This document shows, piece after piece, positions 901 to 17,736 of a stretch of 44,390 nucleotides of DNA. The position numbers and the translations under genes were made by a program. Source of the DNA: Desulfurivibrio sp. (GTDB taxonomy: Bacteria; Desulfobacterota; Desulfobulbia; Desulfobulbales; Desulfurivibrionaceae); the NCBI GenBank assembly GCA_013791995.1, contig VMSS01000149.1:1-44390 (forward strand), given 5' to 3'. Below the pieces are notes generated by a model. It saw only the letters and a program-made list of their open reading frames with translations, had not been told where the DNA came from and did no database searches. Position 1 is the first letter of the stretch; each line of letters starts with the position of its first letter.

Positions 901-1117
901 AATAGGGCAACTCCGTGAGGATTCTTCGTGGGCAACTGCATCCTGCCGGATATACTATGCGGCAAGCCGGAAAAAGTCCCTAAAAAAAGTACCGGCCCCG
1001 CCCCGGCATCACCCAGATCAAGTCAAACGTTGACCACCACCGGGCTTGACGTCCGACATAGGCAATGGTAAAGAGCCAGATCAGGGTCTCGAAAATTACT
1101 AATAGCCTCAGCCCTAT

Positions 1118-1245
1118 AACTGTTCAGCAGCGCCGCATATGCGCGACAGAGGCCTGAGTGCTATACATCGGTATGCGTTCAGGCCGGATAACAGCTAAGC
1201 GAGCGCAGCGAGACTGCGAAGCAGATGCGCTGCCTCAGGACAGTT
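1118..1245 (+). repeat. Palindromic dispersed element, copy 1 (imperfect terminal inverted repeats)
   Basis: AACTGTTCAGCAGCGCCGCAT...ATGCGCTGCCTCAGGACAGTT; strongly similar over its length to the reverse complement of 16655-16783, including the core ACAGCTAAGCGAGCGCAG..GCGAGACTGCGA.GCAG. Confidence 0.85.
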
Positions 1246-1250
1246 ACAAC

Positions 1251-2444
1251 ATGCCCTTATTGCTCTACACCTATATCGCCACCGAGATTCTGGCTCCGTT
1301 TTTCGCGAGCTTTCTCATTATAAACGCCATCCTCTTTCTGGGCAGGCTTGTTCCCCTTCTCAACGTGATCTTCGATTTCGGCGTCGGCAGCGGAGATTTC
1401 CTTCGCCTCTGCGCCTATATGCTGCCCAAGCTGATGATGTTTTCCATTCCCATGGCCAGTATGACCGCAGTCATTGTCGCGGTATCCAGGATGGTGAACG
1501 ACAACGAGATCATGGCCCTGAAAGCCACCGGCATCGGCCTGGTCCGCCTGCTGCCGCCGCTGATCGTCATCGCCCTTTCCACCTCCATGCTCACCTATTT
1601 TTCCGCAGTCACCCTGATTCCCCAGGGTACGCTTGCCATGAAAACGCTTTTTTTACAGATGGCCAAGGAAAAAATCGATAAGGGCGTGCAAGCCGGACAA
1701 TTCAGCGAAGGACTTTCCAATGTTGTGCTCTATATCGACGCGGTGGACCAGCAGACCCGGCAATGGCAGGGTGTATACGTCTCCGACATGCGGCACGGCG
1801 ACACGCCCCTCACCATTGTCGCGAAAACCGGCAGTCTCACCGCCCAACCGGAAAACATGCTGATCACCCTCACCCTGGCCGATGGCACCCTGCACCGCGC
1901 CAATGAAAACATCACCCAGACCATCCGTTTTGACAGCTACCGGATCAACCTGCCCATCAAAACCCCCACGGAAATCGCCGGCACCTCCATTACCGAGGTC
2001 GGGAAAAACGGCATGAACCAGGACCAATTGCTGGAACAGGCCGCGACCCACGGCCCCAAAAGCCCCATCGGGCTGAGCATGCTCATTGAATACCATACCC
2101 GCATGGCCCTGCCGGTGGGCGGCTTCATTCTGACCCTCCTGGGGTTGCCCCTGGCCATGCTGGCCAAACCCGGCCGCAGACCGCTGGGCGTACCGCTCGG
2201 CCTGCTGCTTTTTGTCATCTACTACATCCTGTTCACCGCAGGAAGGGCCAGCGCTGAAAGCGGCAATCTGCCGGTGGTGGTCGGGATGTGGCTGTCCAAT
2301 GTCCTGATCGCTCTCTTTACCATCATGCTCACCCGGCAGGTGGCAAGCGAGACCACCCCGCTCTTCGTCACCCGCTTGAGCGGACCGGTCCTGGCGCTGC
2401 TTGCCAGACTCCCGGGAATCAAATCCGGAGAAAAACAGCCATGA
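1251..2444 (+). CDS. lptF: LPS export ABC transporter permease LptF (YjgP/YjgQ family)
   Basis: MPLLLYTYIATEILAPFFASFLIINAILFLGRLVPLLN..., YjgP/YjgQ-like membrane protein followed by a second family member. The ORF-track start at 1158 lies inside the palindromic element; ATG at 1251 fits better. Confidence 0.85.
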   Translation: MPLLLYTYIATEILAPFFASFLIINAILFLGRLVPLLNVIFDFGVGSGDFLRLCAYMLPKLMMFSIPMASMTAVIVAVSRMVNDNEIMALKATGIGLVRLLPPLIVIALSTSMLTYFSAVTLIPQGTLAMKTLFLQMAKEKIDKGVQAGQFSEGLSNVVLYIDAVDQQTRQWQGVYVSDMRHGDTPLTIVAKTGSLTAQPENMLITLTLADGTLHRANENITQTIRFDSYRINLPIKTPTEIAGTSITEVGKNGMNQDQLLEQAATHGPKSPIGLSMLIEYHTRMALPVGGFILTLLGLPLAMLAKPGRRPLGVPLGLLLFVIYYILFTAGRASAESGNLPVVVGMWLSNVLIALFTIMLTRQVASETTPLFVTRLSGPVLALLARLPGIKSGEKQP

Positions 2445-8381: not shown

Positions 8382-9557
8382 TCAGGAAGCAATTGCCGCC
8401 ACTTGCACGGTTTGCCGAGCCTGACTTGCGCTGAACACCGTTTCCACTCCCTCAAGAAGCCCCAATGCACCAAGACGTTTCACGTTGGCGTTGCCCCTGC
8501 CCCTATAGATGGACTCGTCCGCCTTGGCAAGCGTAAGGCGATGGGGCTGATGGAGGCGGCGGGAGGAAAGCTTGGCCCGGACCTGATTGAAAAAAATCCG
8601 GGAAAGCACCAGCTCGCCGAATGCCGGATGGTATGGCCCGGCCAGCACGGTTTTTTCCAATGAAGCCGAAGGTTGCAATCCCATGCGCACCACGGGGATG
8701 TTGTGCGCCTTGAAAATCAGCCACAACCGACCGGCCATGGCCACGGCCCGATTCAGGCTCAGAGGCTGATACTGCCCCTGATGATACAGTTCCGCCAGAG
8801 GACTGCCGGAGATAACCAGACAGGGATAGAGCCGCACCATATCAGGCTCCAGATCTGCAGCCTGACGGCCGCTGGCCAAGGCTGTGACTGTGTTGTCGCC
8901 GGGCAGGCCGAGCATGAGTTGCAGTCCGACCTGGAGGCCCTCTTCTTTCAGACAGGCCACCGCCGCCTTAACCTGGGCCGCAGTATGCCCCCTGCCGCTT
9001 GCAGCCAGCACGCGATCATCCAGCGACTGGGCGCCCAGCTCCACAATCCCGACCCCATGCTCCCGCAAAAACAGGGCGATTTCAGGGGTTACGTAATCCG
9101 GGCGGGTGGAGAGCCGTATTTCCCGAACCTGTCCCGTTGCCAGAAAAGGCTGCACCGCGCCGAGCAATTCCCGTTGCCGCTCCAGATCAAGGCCGGTGAA
9201 GCTGCCGCCGTAAAAGGCCACCTGAACCGGCGCGGTGGGATAGCGGCGGGGCCAGGCAAGTTGGGTGCGGATGGTCTCCTGCACCGCTTGGGCAGTGACC
9301 ATGCCCTCCGAAGCACCGGTGATGCTGCGCTGGTTACAAAACAGACATTGATGGGGACAGCCCTGATGGGCAATGAAGATTGGGATGACAAAGGGCGGCG
9401 ACTTTGGCAAGCGATCACAGGGCACGACATCTGCTTTGTTATCAGCCTGTTCGCATACGGATGTATGGCTCTCAGGCCTCTGCCGCGCATCTGTCGCACC
9501 CTGTAATCGCTTACAGGTTAGAATAGAGTTTTTGGCGGAATAATCAGTTACAGACAT
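8382..9557 (-). CDS. Radical SAM protein (Elp3/HemN-like fold)
   Basis: IPIFIAHQGCPHQCLFCNQRSITG (CxxxCxxC), FYGGSFTGL, RLSTRPDYV, GAQSLDDRVL; start codon uncertain. Confidence 0.8.
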   Translation of the reverse strand: MSVTDYSAKNSILTCKRLQGATDARQRPESHTSVCEQADNKADVVPCDRLPKSPPFVIPIFIAHQGCPHQCLFCNQRSITGASEGMVTAQAVQETIRTQLAWPRRYPTAPVQVAFYGGSFTGLDLERQRELLGAVQPFLATGQVREIRLSTRPDYVTPEIALFLREHGVGIVELGAQSLDDRVLAASGRGHTAAQVKAAVACLKEEGLQVGLQLMLGLPGDNTVTALASGRQAADLEPDMVRLYPCLVISGSPLAELYHQGQYQPLSLNRAVAMAGRLWLIFKAHNIPVVRMGLQPSASLEKTVLAGPYHPAFGELVLSRIFFNQVRAKLSSRRLHQPHRLTLAKADESIYRGRGNANVKRLGALGLLEGVETVFSASQARQTVQVAAIAS

Positions 9558-10534: not shown

Positions 10535-10610
10535 GGCGGCGTAGCCAAGTGGCTAAGGCAGTGGTCTGCAAAACCATTATTCAGCGGTTCAAATCCGCTC
10601 GCCGCCTCCA
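10535..10610 (+). tRNA. tRNA-Cys (GCA), CCA encoded
   Basis: GGCGGCG...CTCTGCAAAA-type anticodon loop with GCA...GGTTCAAATCC...CGCCGCC-T-CCA; acceptor stem 10535-10541 / 10600-10606. Confidence 0.93.
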
Positions 10611-15030: not shown

Positions 15031-15666
15031 CTACAATCCTGAGGAGGAAGGCTTCGCCAGCAACGGCGTCAGTTCCTGGGCAATCTCCCGGCAAAAACTC
15101 CCCAGCACCTCGTTCAGGGCAACAACCAGTCCTTCCTGACCCTGGCTTGTGGCAGGAACCCGATAATTGCTCCGTCTTTCCGACAGCAAAATCCCGCCGT
15201 CCTGGCCCTTGACCGACCAGCGGACAACCAATCGGGCTGCCCCGTCGCCCTCATTTTCAAAGTTGTACACCTCGGCAATGAGTTGGTAATCCGTGGTCCG
15301 GGAAGATGGCCAGGGGTAGAGCAGGATGCGGTCGGTACCCAACAGCACCGAGAGGTTTTCCCCCATCACCCTAGGGATATTTTCGCTGAGCGGCTCGGCC
15401 CAGCGGTGGCTATCAGCCAGTTGCAGCCGGTTGGGTGTCACCCTGGTAACGATTTTAGGCCGCTCCAGGTATTCCGGCAACCGCACCGGGCCTATGCCAA
15501 TCACCATCTTGCCCGCTTCGGGGGTGGCAGGGGCGATTCTGGCCATTTCCAGAGCCGAGAGCTGATAATAATTAACCGGCACTATAGGAGCACAGCCTGA
15601 AAGCAGTGCACAGACCAGAAAGACCAGGAGGCTGGCAACCATCCGTTTGCATTGTACATTTCTCAT
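15031..15666 (-). CDS. PqiC-like ABC-type transport auxiliary lipoprotein
   Basis: Lipobox LSGC; YYQLSALE...IGIGPVRLPEYLERPKIVTRVTPNRLQLADSHRWAEPLSENIPRVMGENLSVLLG; 4-bp overlap with the upstream MCE gene. Confidence 0.85.
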   Translation of the reverse strand: MRNVQCKRMVASLLVFLVCALLSGCAPIVPVNYYQLSALEMARIAPATPEAGKMVIGIGPVRLPEYLERPKIVTRVTPNRLQLADSHRWAEPLSENIPRVMGENLSVLLGTDRILLYPWPSSRTTDYQLIAEVYNFENEGDGAARLVVRWSVKGQDGGILLSERRSNYRVPATSQGQEGLVVALNEVLGSFCREIAQELTPLLAKPSSSGL

Positions 15667-16640
15667 TTTCGCTCCTCTTCGAGACGTTTTCCCTGCACAA
15701 TGGCCGCCGGTTGCAGCTCCAAGGTTTCCGCCAAAAGCCGCAGGGCGCGGGCCGTACGGGTAAGCTCCTGAAGCGCGGTGTTGAGATGCTGCACTGTGGG
15801 TGAATCTTCCCCGGCCAGCCCTTGCAGGGCCTGCGCCGTCTTGGCCATTTCCTCGCTGGCTTTGCCCAGGCTGTCAGCCATGGGAGAACCGGCCTCAGCC
15901 ACCCTGCCAACCTTAACCATTGCATCCCGAACCGCTTCAAGCGCCTCACGCATCTCGGCAAGCACAGGAGTGCTATTGCCGTCGATTTTGGCGCTCAGTG
16001 ATTGCAGATGCGACAGCGTCGCCTCCAGCCGCACCGGAATCTTCTTGGTTTCTTCCGAGGAAAGGATTGTGTTGAGCGACTTGCTGATTGCGGCAAGATC
16101 CGTAAGAAAGGCATCCATGGGAAACCCTTCCAGCTTGGAAGCAAATTCTTCCACCGCAGTGGGAATAGTAGGAATTTCGCTCACCCCGGAATCGGTTGAG
16201 ATATACCGGGCCGGTTTTTCCGGATGAAAATCCAGATCGATATACAACTGGCCGGTGAGCAGGCTCTGCACCTTGAGTTGGGCGCGCAATCCCCGTTCCA
16301 CCAACTGCCGGATGGTATCCCGATCCTGAAGATCGACCTGCTCGCCAACGCGGGATTGGGCGATGTTGGGTTCGACCTCGATGGTGACCGGCACCATAAA
16401 GCGACGACTTTCCGCATCAAGCCCGAGTTGGATGCGTTTGACCGTGCCCACTTTGACCCCGAGAAAAACCACCGGCGAGCCGACCTGCAACCCCTGGGCA
16501 GCTCCTTCAAAATAGAGCAGATGCTGACGCCGCTCCTGAAACCACTGCCCCCCGGCCAGACGCAGAACAGTCACCGCCCCGAGGATGATGGCGCCTAGAA
16601 CAAAGGCCCCGATAAGCGTGGGATTTGCCTGTCTGCTCAT
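15663..16640 (-). CDS. MlaD/MCE-domain protein
   Basis: MSRQANPTLIGAFVLGAIILGAVTVLRLAGGQWF...LLYFEGAAQGLQVGSPVVFLGVKVGTVKRIQLG. Confidence 0.9.
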   Translation of the reverse strand: MSRQANPTLIGAFVLGAIILGAVTVLRLAGGQWFQERRQHLLYFEGAAQGLQVGSPVVFLGVKVGTVKRIQLGLDAESRRFMVPVTIEVEPNIAQSRVGEQVDLQDRDTIRQLVERGLRAQLKVQSLLTGQLYIDLDFHPEKPARYISTDSGVSEIPTIPTAVEEFASKLEGFPMDAFLTDLAAISKSLNTILSSEETKKIPVRLEATLSHLQSLSAKIDGNSTPVLAEMREALEAVRDAMVKVGRVAEAGSPMADSLGKASEEMAKTAQALQGLAGEDSPTVQHLNTALQELTRTARALRLLAETLELQPAAIVQGKRLEEERK

Positions 16641-16654
16641 TCAGCCCCCCTGAT

Positions 16655-16783
16655 AACTGTCCGGCAGCACCACACCTGCCTCGCAGTCTCGCTCTGCGCT
16701 CGCTTAGCTGTCATCGGACCGCTCATGTGCAAAAGCACATTTCGCAGGCCTCTTCCTCGCATCTGTGGTGCTGCTGAACAGTT
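16655..16783 (-). repeat. Palindromic dispersed element, copy 2
   Basis: Terminal inverted repeats AACTGTCCGGCAGCACCACA (16655-16674) and TGTGGTGCTGCTGAACAGTT (16764-16783), 18/20 matching; homologous to 1118-1245; bracketed by TCATTCAGCCCCCCTG at 16637-16652 and 16810-16825. Confidence 0.88.
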
Positions 16784-16809
16784 CTCTTTCATTTTCTTCC
16801 TCAAGCAGT

Positions 16810-17559
16810 TCATTCAGCCCCCCTGGTCAGAAAATGACGCACTTTTGGATCTCCGGAAGCAACCGCATCCTTGGGTTTGCCGGAGTTGATCATGGTGTGG
16901 GTCTCGGTGTCCAGAAAAATCGAGTTGCTTCCGATGGCAAGGATGCTGGCCAGATCATGGGATATCACCACAATGGTTGTCTCCAGACTGTCGCGCAATT
17001 CAATAATCAGATCGTCAAGATGGCGGGCCGTGGGCGGATCGAGACCGGAAGAAGGTTCGTCGATCACCAGAATATCCGGGTCAAGGGCCATGGCGCGGGC
17101 CAGAGCCGCCCGTTTCTTCATGCCGCCGCTCAGTTCGGAAGGATAAAAATCCTCAAAACCTGTCAGCCCCACCAAAGCCAACTTGAAGGAAATGATCTCG
17201 GCAAGCTGGCGGGGTGAAAGATCGGTGTACTCTTTCAGGGGGAGAGCGATATTTTCCCCCAGAGTCATCGAACTCCACAGGGCGCCGCCCTGAAACATGA
17301 TACCGAGCCGCCGCTTGAGCCGCTCCTGTTCCTCATGTTCAACCTTCCAAAAATCCTCGCCGCCATAAAAGACCGCTCCTTTGGCCGGACGCTGCAGGCC
17401 GATCAGGGCGCGCATCACAGTGGTCTTGCCGCAGCCGCTCCCGCCCATGATGACAAAGATATCCCCCCTGTTGATCACAAAATTGAGATCGCGCTGGATG
17501 ACGAAATCGCCATACGCCATGGTCACGTCGCGGACTTCGATGTGCGGTGCGGCATTCAT
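16810..17559 (-). CDS. MlaF-like ABC transporter ATP-binding protein
   Basis: MNAAPHIEVRDVTMAYGDFVIQRDLNFVINRGDIFVIMGGSGCGKTT...LSGGMKKRAALARAMALDPDILVIDEPSSGLDP. Confidence 0.9.
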   Translation of the reverse strand: MNAAPHIEVRDVTMAYGDFVIQRDLNFVINRGDIFVIMGGSGCGKTTVMRALIGLQRPAKGAVFYGGEDFWKVEHEEQERLKRRLGIMFQGGALWSSMTLGENIALPLKEYTDLSPRQLAEIISFKLALVGLTGFEDFYPSELSGGMKKRAALARAMALDPDILVIDEPSSGLDPPTARHLDDLIIELRDSLETTIVVISHDLASILAIGSNSIFLDTETHTMINSGKPKDAVASGDPKVRHFLTRGAE

Positions 17560-17600
17560 GACTGAGCACCTTGCAACTCGTATTGTTTTGAAAAGACGCC

Positions 17601-17707
17601 CATCCCTTGGCGGGAGGGATTGGGGGTGGGGGTGGGGAAAGCTGCAACATTTGAGATAATGGCAAGCTCCCCCTCTCCCTGACCCTCCCCCGCCAGGGGG
17701 GAGGGAA
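17601..17707. repeat. Inverted pair of G/C-run repeat in operon gap
   Basis: CATCCCTTGGCGGGAGGGATTGGGGGTGGGGGTGGGG and CCCCCTCTCCCTGACCCTCCCCCGCCAGGGGGGAGGGA; arms are approximate reverse complements. Confidence 0.75.
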
Positions 17708-17736
17708 TTATCCTCCATTGCGTCAAGCTACACATA

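What the first reader, a model, noticed from the sequence alone, without database searches (positions are those of the whole stretch)
1118..1250. ~128-nt cloverleaf-like palindromic element abutting the lptF start codon
AACTGTTCAGCAG...CTGAGGACAGTT-type ends can pair. An inner arm GGCCTGA...TCAGGCC forms a perfect 7-bp stem, followed by ACAGCTAAGCGAGCGCAGCGAGACTGCG. It ends 5 nt before the lptF ATG, so it is likely transcribed as the 5' leader and may supply the SD (AGGA). A homologous copy in the same sense orientation precedes an mlaD-like gene (separate finding). It could be a mobile palindrome or a cis-regulatory RNA shared by envelope-lipid transport genes. Copies are clear from sequence; function is inference from n=2.
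Basis: partly seen in the sequence, partly recalled or inferred. Interest (0 to 1): 0.78.

Follow-up and report, generated by a model that had tools for sequence, protein, structure and literature searches.

The report
IS66-type mini-transposon with folded cloverleaf core
The palindrome in front of lptF is one of dozens of short transposon copies per genome in uncultivated sulfate-reducer relatives; it carries IS66-type ends, no transposase of its own, and an unusually well preserved folding core whose purpose is unknown.

Summary
The cloverleaf is real (window 1116-1247, 3 nt before the lptF ATG), but it is not an lptF-specific leader. It is most of a 150-210 bp non-autonomous transposon (MITE) with dozens of copies in this genome and in relatives. 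The complete element begins about 48 nt further upstream at a third GTAA arm. It ends in TTAC and is flanked by 8-bp target duplications, and clean empty sites occur in relatives. Its left end matches IS66-family (ISBst12-group) insertion sequences. In one genome of the order (G040), an intact 1,729-bp IS66 element and a MITE copy share 19 of 19 end bases. No IS66 transposase was found in 17 same-genus genomes. Orientation relative to genes is mixed (14 sense, 19 antisense), and the lptF insertion is absent from at least two of the 17 genomes and probably from three more.

Unexpectedly, the core is under strong pairing constraint. In a 55-sequence alignment, 27 of 37 pairs show changes on both sides. 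G·T far exceeds A·C on one strand (575 vs 69), whichever way the element points relative to genes. The fold therefore appears to matter to the element, as RNA or single-stranded DNA, rather than to lptF. A covariance model finds it in 131 of 194 genomes sampled from the order. How the fold works is inference.

The parts
1068..1115 (+). Probable left end of the full element: GTAAAGAGCCAG (decayed terminal arm) plus linker
   Evidence: Inference: GTAA lies 48 nt upstream of the palindrome, where TSD-defined copies have their left end (offsets 45-49). No 8-bp duplication is left here.
1116..1247 (+). Cloverleaf core of the MITE, long form, ending in TTAC
   Evidence: aligned with 23 other long-form copies; three stems.
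1116..1141 (+). 5' strand of the outer stem (inner copy of the terminal arm)
1151..1185 (+). Hairpin arm GGCCTGA...TCAGGCC
1193..1217 (+). Third arm, present only in long-form copies (approximate limits)
   Evidence: consensus columns 83-109; the single-sequence MFE of this copy pairs it differently.
1222..1247 (+). 3' strand of the outer stem, which is also the right terminal inverted repeat of the transposon
1248..1255 (+). AACATGCC: the native sequence, including the lptF ATG, resumes here (right-hand target copy, inferred)
   Evidence: alignments of genomes lacking the element start at query 777-779 = window 1248-1250 (769 in one).
1251..2444 (+). lptF (LptF_LptG)
   Evidence: E 4.8e-68
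9407..9514 (-). Third copy (short form, GTAAGCGATTACAGGG arm), between rnc and a radical-SAM gene
9515..9551 (-). Probable left-end arm and linker of the third copy (GTAACTGATTATT...)
   Evidence: sequence
16654..16783 (-). Second copy (long form) between an ABC ATPase gene (16810-17718 -) and an MlaD gene (15663-16640 -)

Best explanation
A non-autonomous IS66-type transposon (MITE) inserted immediately upstream of the lptF start codon in an ancestor of part of this genus. The complete element is about 150-210 bp: left terminal arm GTAA..., a linker of about 33 nt, then a second GTAA arm that base-pairs with the right terminal arm (...TTAC) around a hairpin, plus an optional third arm, giving the cloverleaf. 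An IS66-family (ISBst12-group) transposase acting in trans on the GTAA/TTAC ends inserts it and makes an 8-bp target duplication. Shown: the ends, the duplications, the empty sites, the shared ends with an intact IS66 element in a related genome, and the pairing constraint on one strand. Inferred: that IS66 transposase moves it; that the fold is needed for the element's own propagation, as RNA or as one strand of DNA; and that for lptF it is only an inherited 5' leader.
For: Dispersed copies: 53 matches at E<=10 in the own genome, at least 6 in each of 12 same-genus genomes, 34 in G007. 8-bp duplications: 8-mers matching >=7/8 peak at offsets 45-49 upstream of the palindrome (58 matches there; 12 scattered over all offsets in the control); 67 full elements with >=6/8. 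Empty sites with one target copy, for example L148/CGACATAC against G007 (792 aligned bp), also L172, L177, L154, L147, L138, L040. IS66 ends: ISDge4 GTAACTGCTCAGCA with 8-bp repeat (PMC12898284); pHTA426 IS66 GTAACTATTCAGC with 8/8 duplication; intact IS66 elements in G040, G143 and G135 with such ends and 8/8 duplications. The G040 IS66 end GTAACTATCCAGCTTGCGC equals the left end of a G040 MITE copy, 19/19, which also has a TTTTGGAT duplication. Fold: 27 of 37 pairs changed on both sides, 97.5% of cells paired, score 0.525 against 0.219 for shuffles and at most 0.115 for slid partners; G-T 575 against A-C 69 with a symmetric end search, no matching bias in unpaired columns, same in sense and antisense copies.
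Against: No IS66 transposase (PF03050 or PF05717) in 17 same-genus genomes, although PF03050 does detect an ISBst12-type transposase; in this genus the mobiliser is missing or sporadic. The window's own three copies show no 8-bp duplication, so their insertion is inferred from the family. The cloverleaf core has no match in the four IS66 elements examined, so it is not a simple deletion derivative of them. No in vivo transposition was tested.
Confidence: 0.88

Rival explanations
1. A cis-regulatory RNA (leader/riboswitch-like) of lptF and other envelope-lipid genes, conserved for gene regulation.
For: It abuts the lptF ATG and an MlaD gene in sense; strong covariation and one-strand G-U preference; the lptF copy is shared by about nine species of the genus.
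Against: Mixed orientation (14 sense, 19 antisense); wobble bias equal in sense and antisense copies; unrelated neighbouring genes; lptF insertion absent in G009 and G010 and, from alignment gaps, probably in G001, G008 and G012; no Rfam match.
Confidence: 0.05
2. A variant of the best explanation: the fold acts as single-stranded DNA, not RNA; one strand of the element folds during replication or transposition and this is what selection sees.
For: G-T is also tolerated in DNA hairpins better than A-C (own knowledge); orientation to genes is mixed and no sigma-70-like promoter exceeds shuffles, so a defined RNA is not guaranteed; the right terminal repeat is part of the outer stem.
Against: DDE transposases of the IS66 type are not known to need a folded single strand (own knowledge); the conserved tandem U-G/G-U step is compatible with either.
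Confidence: 0.35
3. A REPIN-like element moved by a Y1 (RAYT) transposase, with GTAA/TTAC as the tetranucleotide.
For: Palindromic, intergenic, short, GTAA/TTAC ends.
Against: No Y1 transposase (PF01797) in the own genome; 8-bp target duplications and IS66-identical ends do not fit ssDNA REP transposition.
Confidence: 0.02
4. Arm complementarity is kept only by DNA-level copying of one arm from the other (homogenised inverted repeats), with no selection on a fold.
For: Arms vary together by subfamily.
Against: It predicts equal G-T and A-C; observed 575 to 69, arising by both C>T (89 vs 19) and A>G (40 vs 6). The bias is also in the inner hairpin (65 vs 6) but not in unpaired columns.
Confidence: 0.05

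Closest known systems
IS66-family insertion sequences, ISBst12 group (ISDge4, PMC12898284; pHTA426 copy, L314)
   Same: Ends GTAACTRNTCAGC..., 8-bp target duplication
   Different: About ten times shorter, no transposase; core not found in the IS66 elements examined
ERIC / RU-1 of enterobacteria (PMC2229807)
   Same: About 127-bp intergenic palindrome, multicopy, transcript forms a long stem-loop
   Different: TA at the termini; here GTAA ends with 8-bp duplication, a third terminal arm, and a core with a one-strand wobble bias
QMITE2 of Coxiella (described in PMC10969869)
   Same: MITE with 7-9 bp direct repeats and a predicted structured transcript
   Different: TIRs of 23-29 bp and a core of 113-145 bp in another phylum; no covariation mentioned in the passages read; sequences not compared here
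Chunjie MITE of Geobacter uraniireducens (mentioned in PMC10969869)
   Same: MITE in a former deltaproteobacterium, inserted in operons
   Different: 235 bp full length; its sequence was not compared here

Membership tests
MITE mobilised by IS66 (ISBst12 group) | Terminal inverted repeats beginning GTAA, matching an IS66 element | tested here: met
   19/19 identity with the intact IS66 of G040
MITE mobilised by IS66 (ISBst12 group) | 8-bp target-site duplication | tested here: met
   the window's own copies have none left
MITE mobilised by IS66 (ISBst12 group) | Precise empty sites in relatives | tested here: met
   (L148, L172, L177, L154, L147, L138, L040)
MITE mobilised by IS66 (ISBst12 group) | Short, no transposase inside | tested here: met
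   Full elements 145-211 bp; the 750-bp copy in L153 is longer only through a nested IS200-like gene
MITE mobilised by IS66 (ISBst12 group) | Autonomous partner in the same genome | tested here: inconclusive
   Present in G040 of the same order; absent from 17 same-genus genomes
MITE mobilised by IS66 (ISBst12 group) | Transposition in trans by IS66 transposase | not testable with these tools
   Needs an in vivo assay
REPIN / RAYT | Y1 transposase in the genome | tested here: not met
   PF01797 none in G000 (other genomes not searched)
REPIN / RAYT | No multi-base target duplication | tested here: not met
   8-bp duplications
ERIC / Correia / RUP type (TA insertion) | TA target duplication at the element ends | tested here: not met
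   Duplication is 8 bp and lies outside GTAA/TTAC
Known RNA family (Rfam 15) | Match to a covariance model | tested here: not met
   no match near any gathering score
Cis-regulatory leader of envelope genes | Sense orientation upstream of a conserved gene set | tested here: not met
Structured nucleic acid under selection for folding | Covariation beyond shuffles and slid partners | tested here: met
   one-strand wobble bias. R-scape not available

The most novel reading that the evidence does not exclude
A DDE-type (IS66/ISBst12) non-autonomous transposon family whose mobility depends on a folded RNA or single-stranded DNA in which the right terminal repeat is base-paired to an internal copy of the arm: a nucleic-acid cofactor for a DDE transposon, spread widely through the order and sporadically through the phylum.
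Probability: 0.2. Interest if true: 0.82.

Novelty: new variant of a known kind. Interest (0 to 1): 0.5.

Why it matters
It turns an apparent lptF leader into a transposon family found in 131 of 194 sampled genomes of the order and 31 of 395 sampled across the phylum, with no Rfam model and no description found in the open literature searched. The one-strand pairing constraint, present whichever way the copy points relative to genes, is not what a passive MITE should show. It makes it testable whether small IS66-type transposons need a folded nucleic acid to move. It also warns that covariation plus a position before a start codon does not prove a gene-regulatory RNA.

Tried and rejected
IS630-type TA insertion and REPIN/RAYT were considered first and rejected: the duplication is 8 bp and there is no Y1 transposase in G000. 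A target duplication directly at the palindrome's own ends was tested and rejected; the left end is at an upstream arm. A search for a longer autonomous element with the same ends in G007 and the loci found none; two leads there were a MITE with a nested IS200-like gene (L153) and two neighbouring MITEs (L106). An apparent closeness of the element's right end to gene ends in G007 proved equal at both ends once the full left end was used. Strand-biased mutation as the cause of the wobble bias was tested and not supported. A built-in sigma-70 promoter was not found above shuffles. Phages, plasmids and viral contigs hold no match. G. kaustophilus plasmid pHTA426 served as an IS66 yardstick after the D. 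geothermalis plasmid record was not held.

Full report
WHAT IS THERE. The cloverleaf lies at 1116-1247 of the window, 3 nt before the lptF ATG at 1251. It folds better than dinucleotide shuffles (z = -3.98 on the + strand, -2.95 on the other). A BLAST search of the own genome gives 53 matches at E<=10, and 35 at E<=0.001; some copies give two matches. Two more copies lie in the window: 9407-9514 (-), between a radical-SAM gene and an RNase III gene, and 16654-16783 (-), between an ABC ATPase gene and an MlaD gene. Twelve same-genus genomes hold 6 to 37 matches each. Named records with the core pattern are all MAGs; nearly all are titled Deltaproteobacteria, Proteobacteria or Desulfobulbaceae.

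THE FULL ELEMENT. In 184 well-defined copies, 8-mers flanking the right end were compared with every position upstream. Matches of at least 7/8 pile up 45-49 nt upstream of the palindrome (58 matches at these offsets; 12 scattered over all offsets in the control), not at the palindrome's own left end (4 matches). At that place sits a third arm beginning GTAA. The complete element therefore runs from this arm to the right-hand TTAC, 145-211 bp, flanked by an 8-bp duplication; 67 copies have at least 6/8. Relatives carry empty sites with one copy of the 8-mer, for example CGACATAC (L148 against G007, 88.5% over 793 bp), and also L172, L177, L154, L147, L138 and L040. In the window's lptF copy the corresponding arm is probably GTAAAGAGCCAG at 1068. 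No duplication remains there or at the other two window copies, so insertion of these three is inferred from the family.

WHO MOVES IT. Published ISDge4 (IS66 family, ISBst12 group) has ends GTAACTGCTCAGCA and GTGACTACTCAGCA and an 8-bp repeat (PMC12898284). The IS66 element of plasmid pHTA426 was measured here: GTAACTATTCAGC and GTATCTATTCAGC ends and an 8/8 duplication; its transposase is detected by PF03050 at 1.9e-64. Copies of the MITE family use the same arms (GTAACTRNYCAGC and the variants GTAAGCG and GTAACCG). In the order, IS66 genes of G143 and G135 are bracketed by such arms. Sequenced examples from G040 (1,729 bp), G143 (1,713 bp) and G135 (1,595 bp) have 8/8 duplications. In G040 the IS66 end GTAACTATCCAGCTTGCGC is identical over 19 nt to the left end of a cloverleaf MITE in the same genome. 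IS66 transposase (PF03050, PF05717) is absent from 17 same-genus genomes, so there the family is at present an orphan. That IS66 transposase moves it is inference from the ends.

GENE CONTEXT. None of 54 full elements lies inside a predicted gene. Among them 14 are sense to both neighbours, 19 antisense, 10 between divergent and 7 between convergent genes; four lack a neighbour in the fetched stretch. At lptF, nine genomes of the genus (own included) align through the element or part of it (G000, G002, G005, G006, G007, G019, G020, G021, G022). G009 and G010 have only 72-84 nt where the query has 236-246, and their lptF alignment resumes at the element's right edge; G001, G008 and G012 look empty by the same gap measure but less clearly. 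G003 and G004 have copies further upstream of lptF. The insertion is thus old but variable.

THE FOLD. In 55 short-form copies, 27 of 37 consensus pairs show changes on both sides; 97.5% of cells are paired. The covariation score is 0.525 against 0.219 in shuffles and at most 0.115 when the partner is slid by 1-3 columns. The long form, which the window copy has, adds a third arm. Because inverted repeats can also be homogenised as DNA, a strand test was made. With the element read 5' to 3', G-T pairs number 554 and A-C 39 in the outer stem. With an end search that treats both alike they number 575 and 69, and 182 copies have more G-T against 8 with more A-C. Both C>T (89 vs 19) and A>G (40 vs 6) routes contribute. 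Unpaired conserved columns show no such strand bias. The inner hairpin shows it too (65 vs 6). The bias is about equal in copies sense and antisense to genes. The fold is therefore constrained as one strand, RNA or single-stranded DNA, and for the element's own sake rather than for host transcripts. Copies share ancestry, so the counts are not independent events.

DISTRIBUTION. A covariance model built from the short form finds matches at E<=1e-5 in 131 of 194 genomes sampled from the order, and in 31 of 395 sampled across the phylum, including families outside the order; its E-values are rough. No Rfam family matches, and nothing was found in phages, plasmids or viral contigs. Paper searches found known bacterial MITEs with structured transcripts (PMC2229807, PMC10969869) but not this one; only open-licence papers were searched.

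VERDICT. An IS66-type MITE family, not an lptF leader: shown by ends, duplications and empty sites. A one-strand folding constraint: shown. Its purpose, with involvement in mobility as the leading guess: inferred.

Noticed in passing
L153:1291-2040: A copy of the MITE (8/8 duplication GCAAGCTT) carries a nested insertion whose ORF looks like an IS200/IS605-type TnpA, inserted in the inner arm.
   Followed up: partly
window 16600-16860 (-): The MlaD copy is flanked by a duplication of about 16 nt (CAGGGGGGCTGAATGA) that includes the ribosome-binding region and start of the MlaD gene; its G007 counterpart (about 202237-202338) shows a similar one. This is longer than the 8 bp of the family and unexplained.
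   Followed up: partly
L038, L007, L127, L043, L177, L090, L173, L091 and others: Where an element abuts a gene's 3' end, its terminal GTAA often supplies the TAA stop codon (gene end overlaps the element by 4 nt), which may make insertion at gene ends harmless.
   Followed up: no
L321, L322, L325 (G040): G040 carries a second short element (about 195 bp) with the same IS66 ends (GTAACTATCCAGC) but an unrelated GC-rich core; 185 arm matches in that genome.
   Followed up: no
L094:5481-5588 and L106:1583-1790: Copies with a different inner core (GACAAGCGG...CCGATCG) inside the same outer stem: a core subfamily.
   Followed up: no
alignment A1 columns 17-18/95-96 and 23-26/87-90: Two conserved non-Watson-Crick steps in the outer stem in both arm types: tandem U-G/G-U and a CAGATG/CAGATG step (tandem G-A).
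   Followed up: partly
window 10535-10607: tRNA gene (Rfam RF00005).
   Followed up: no
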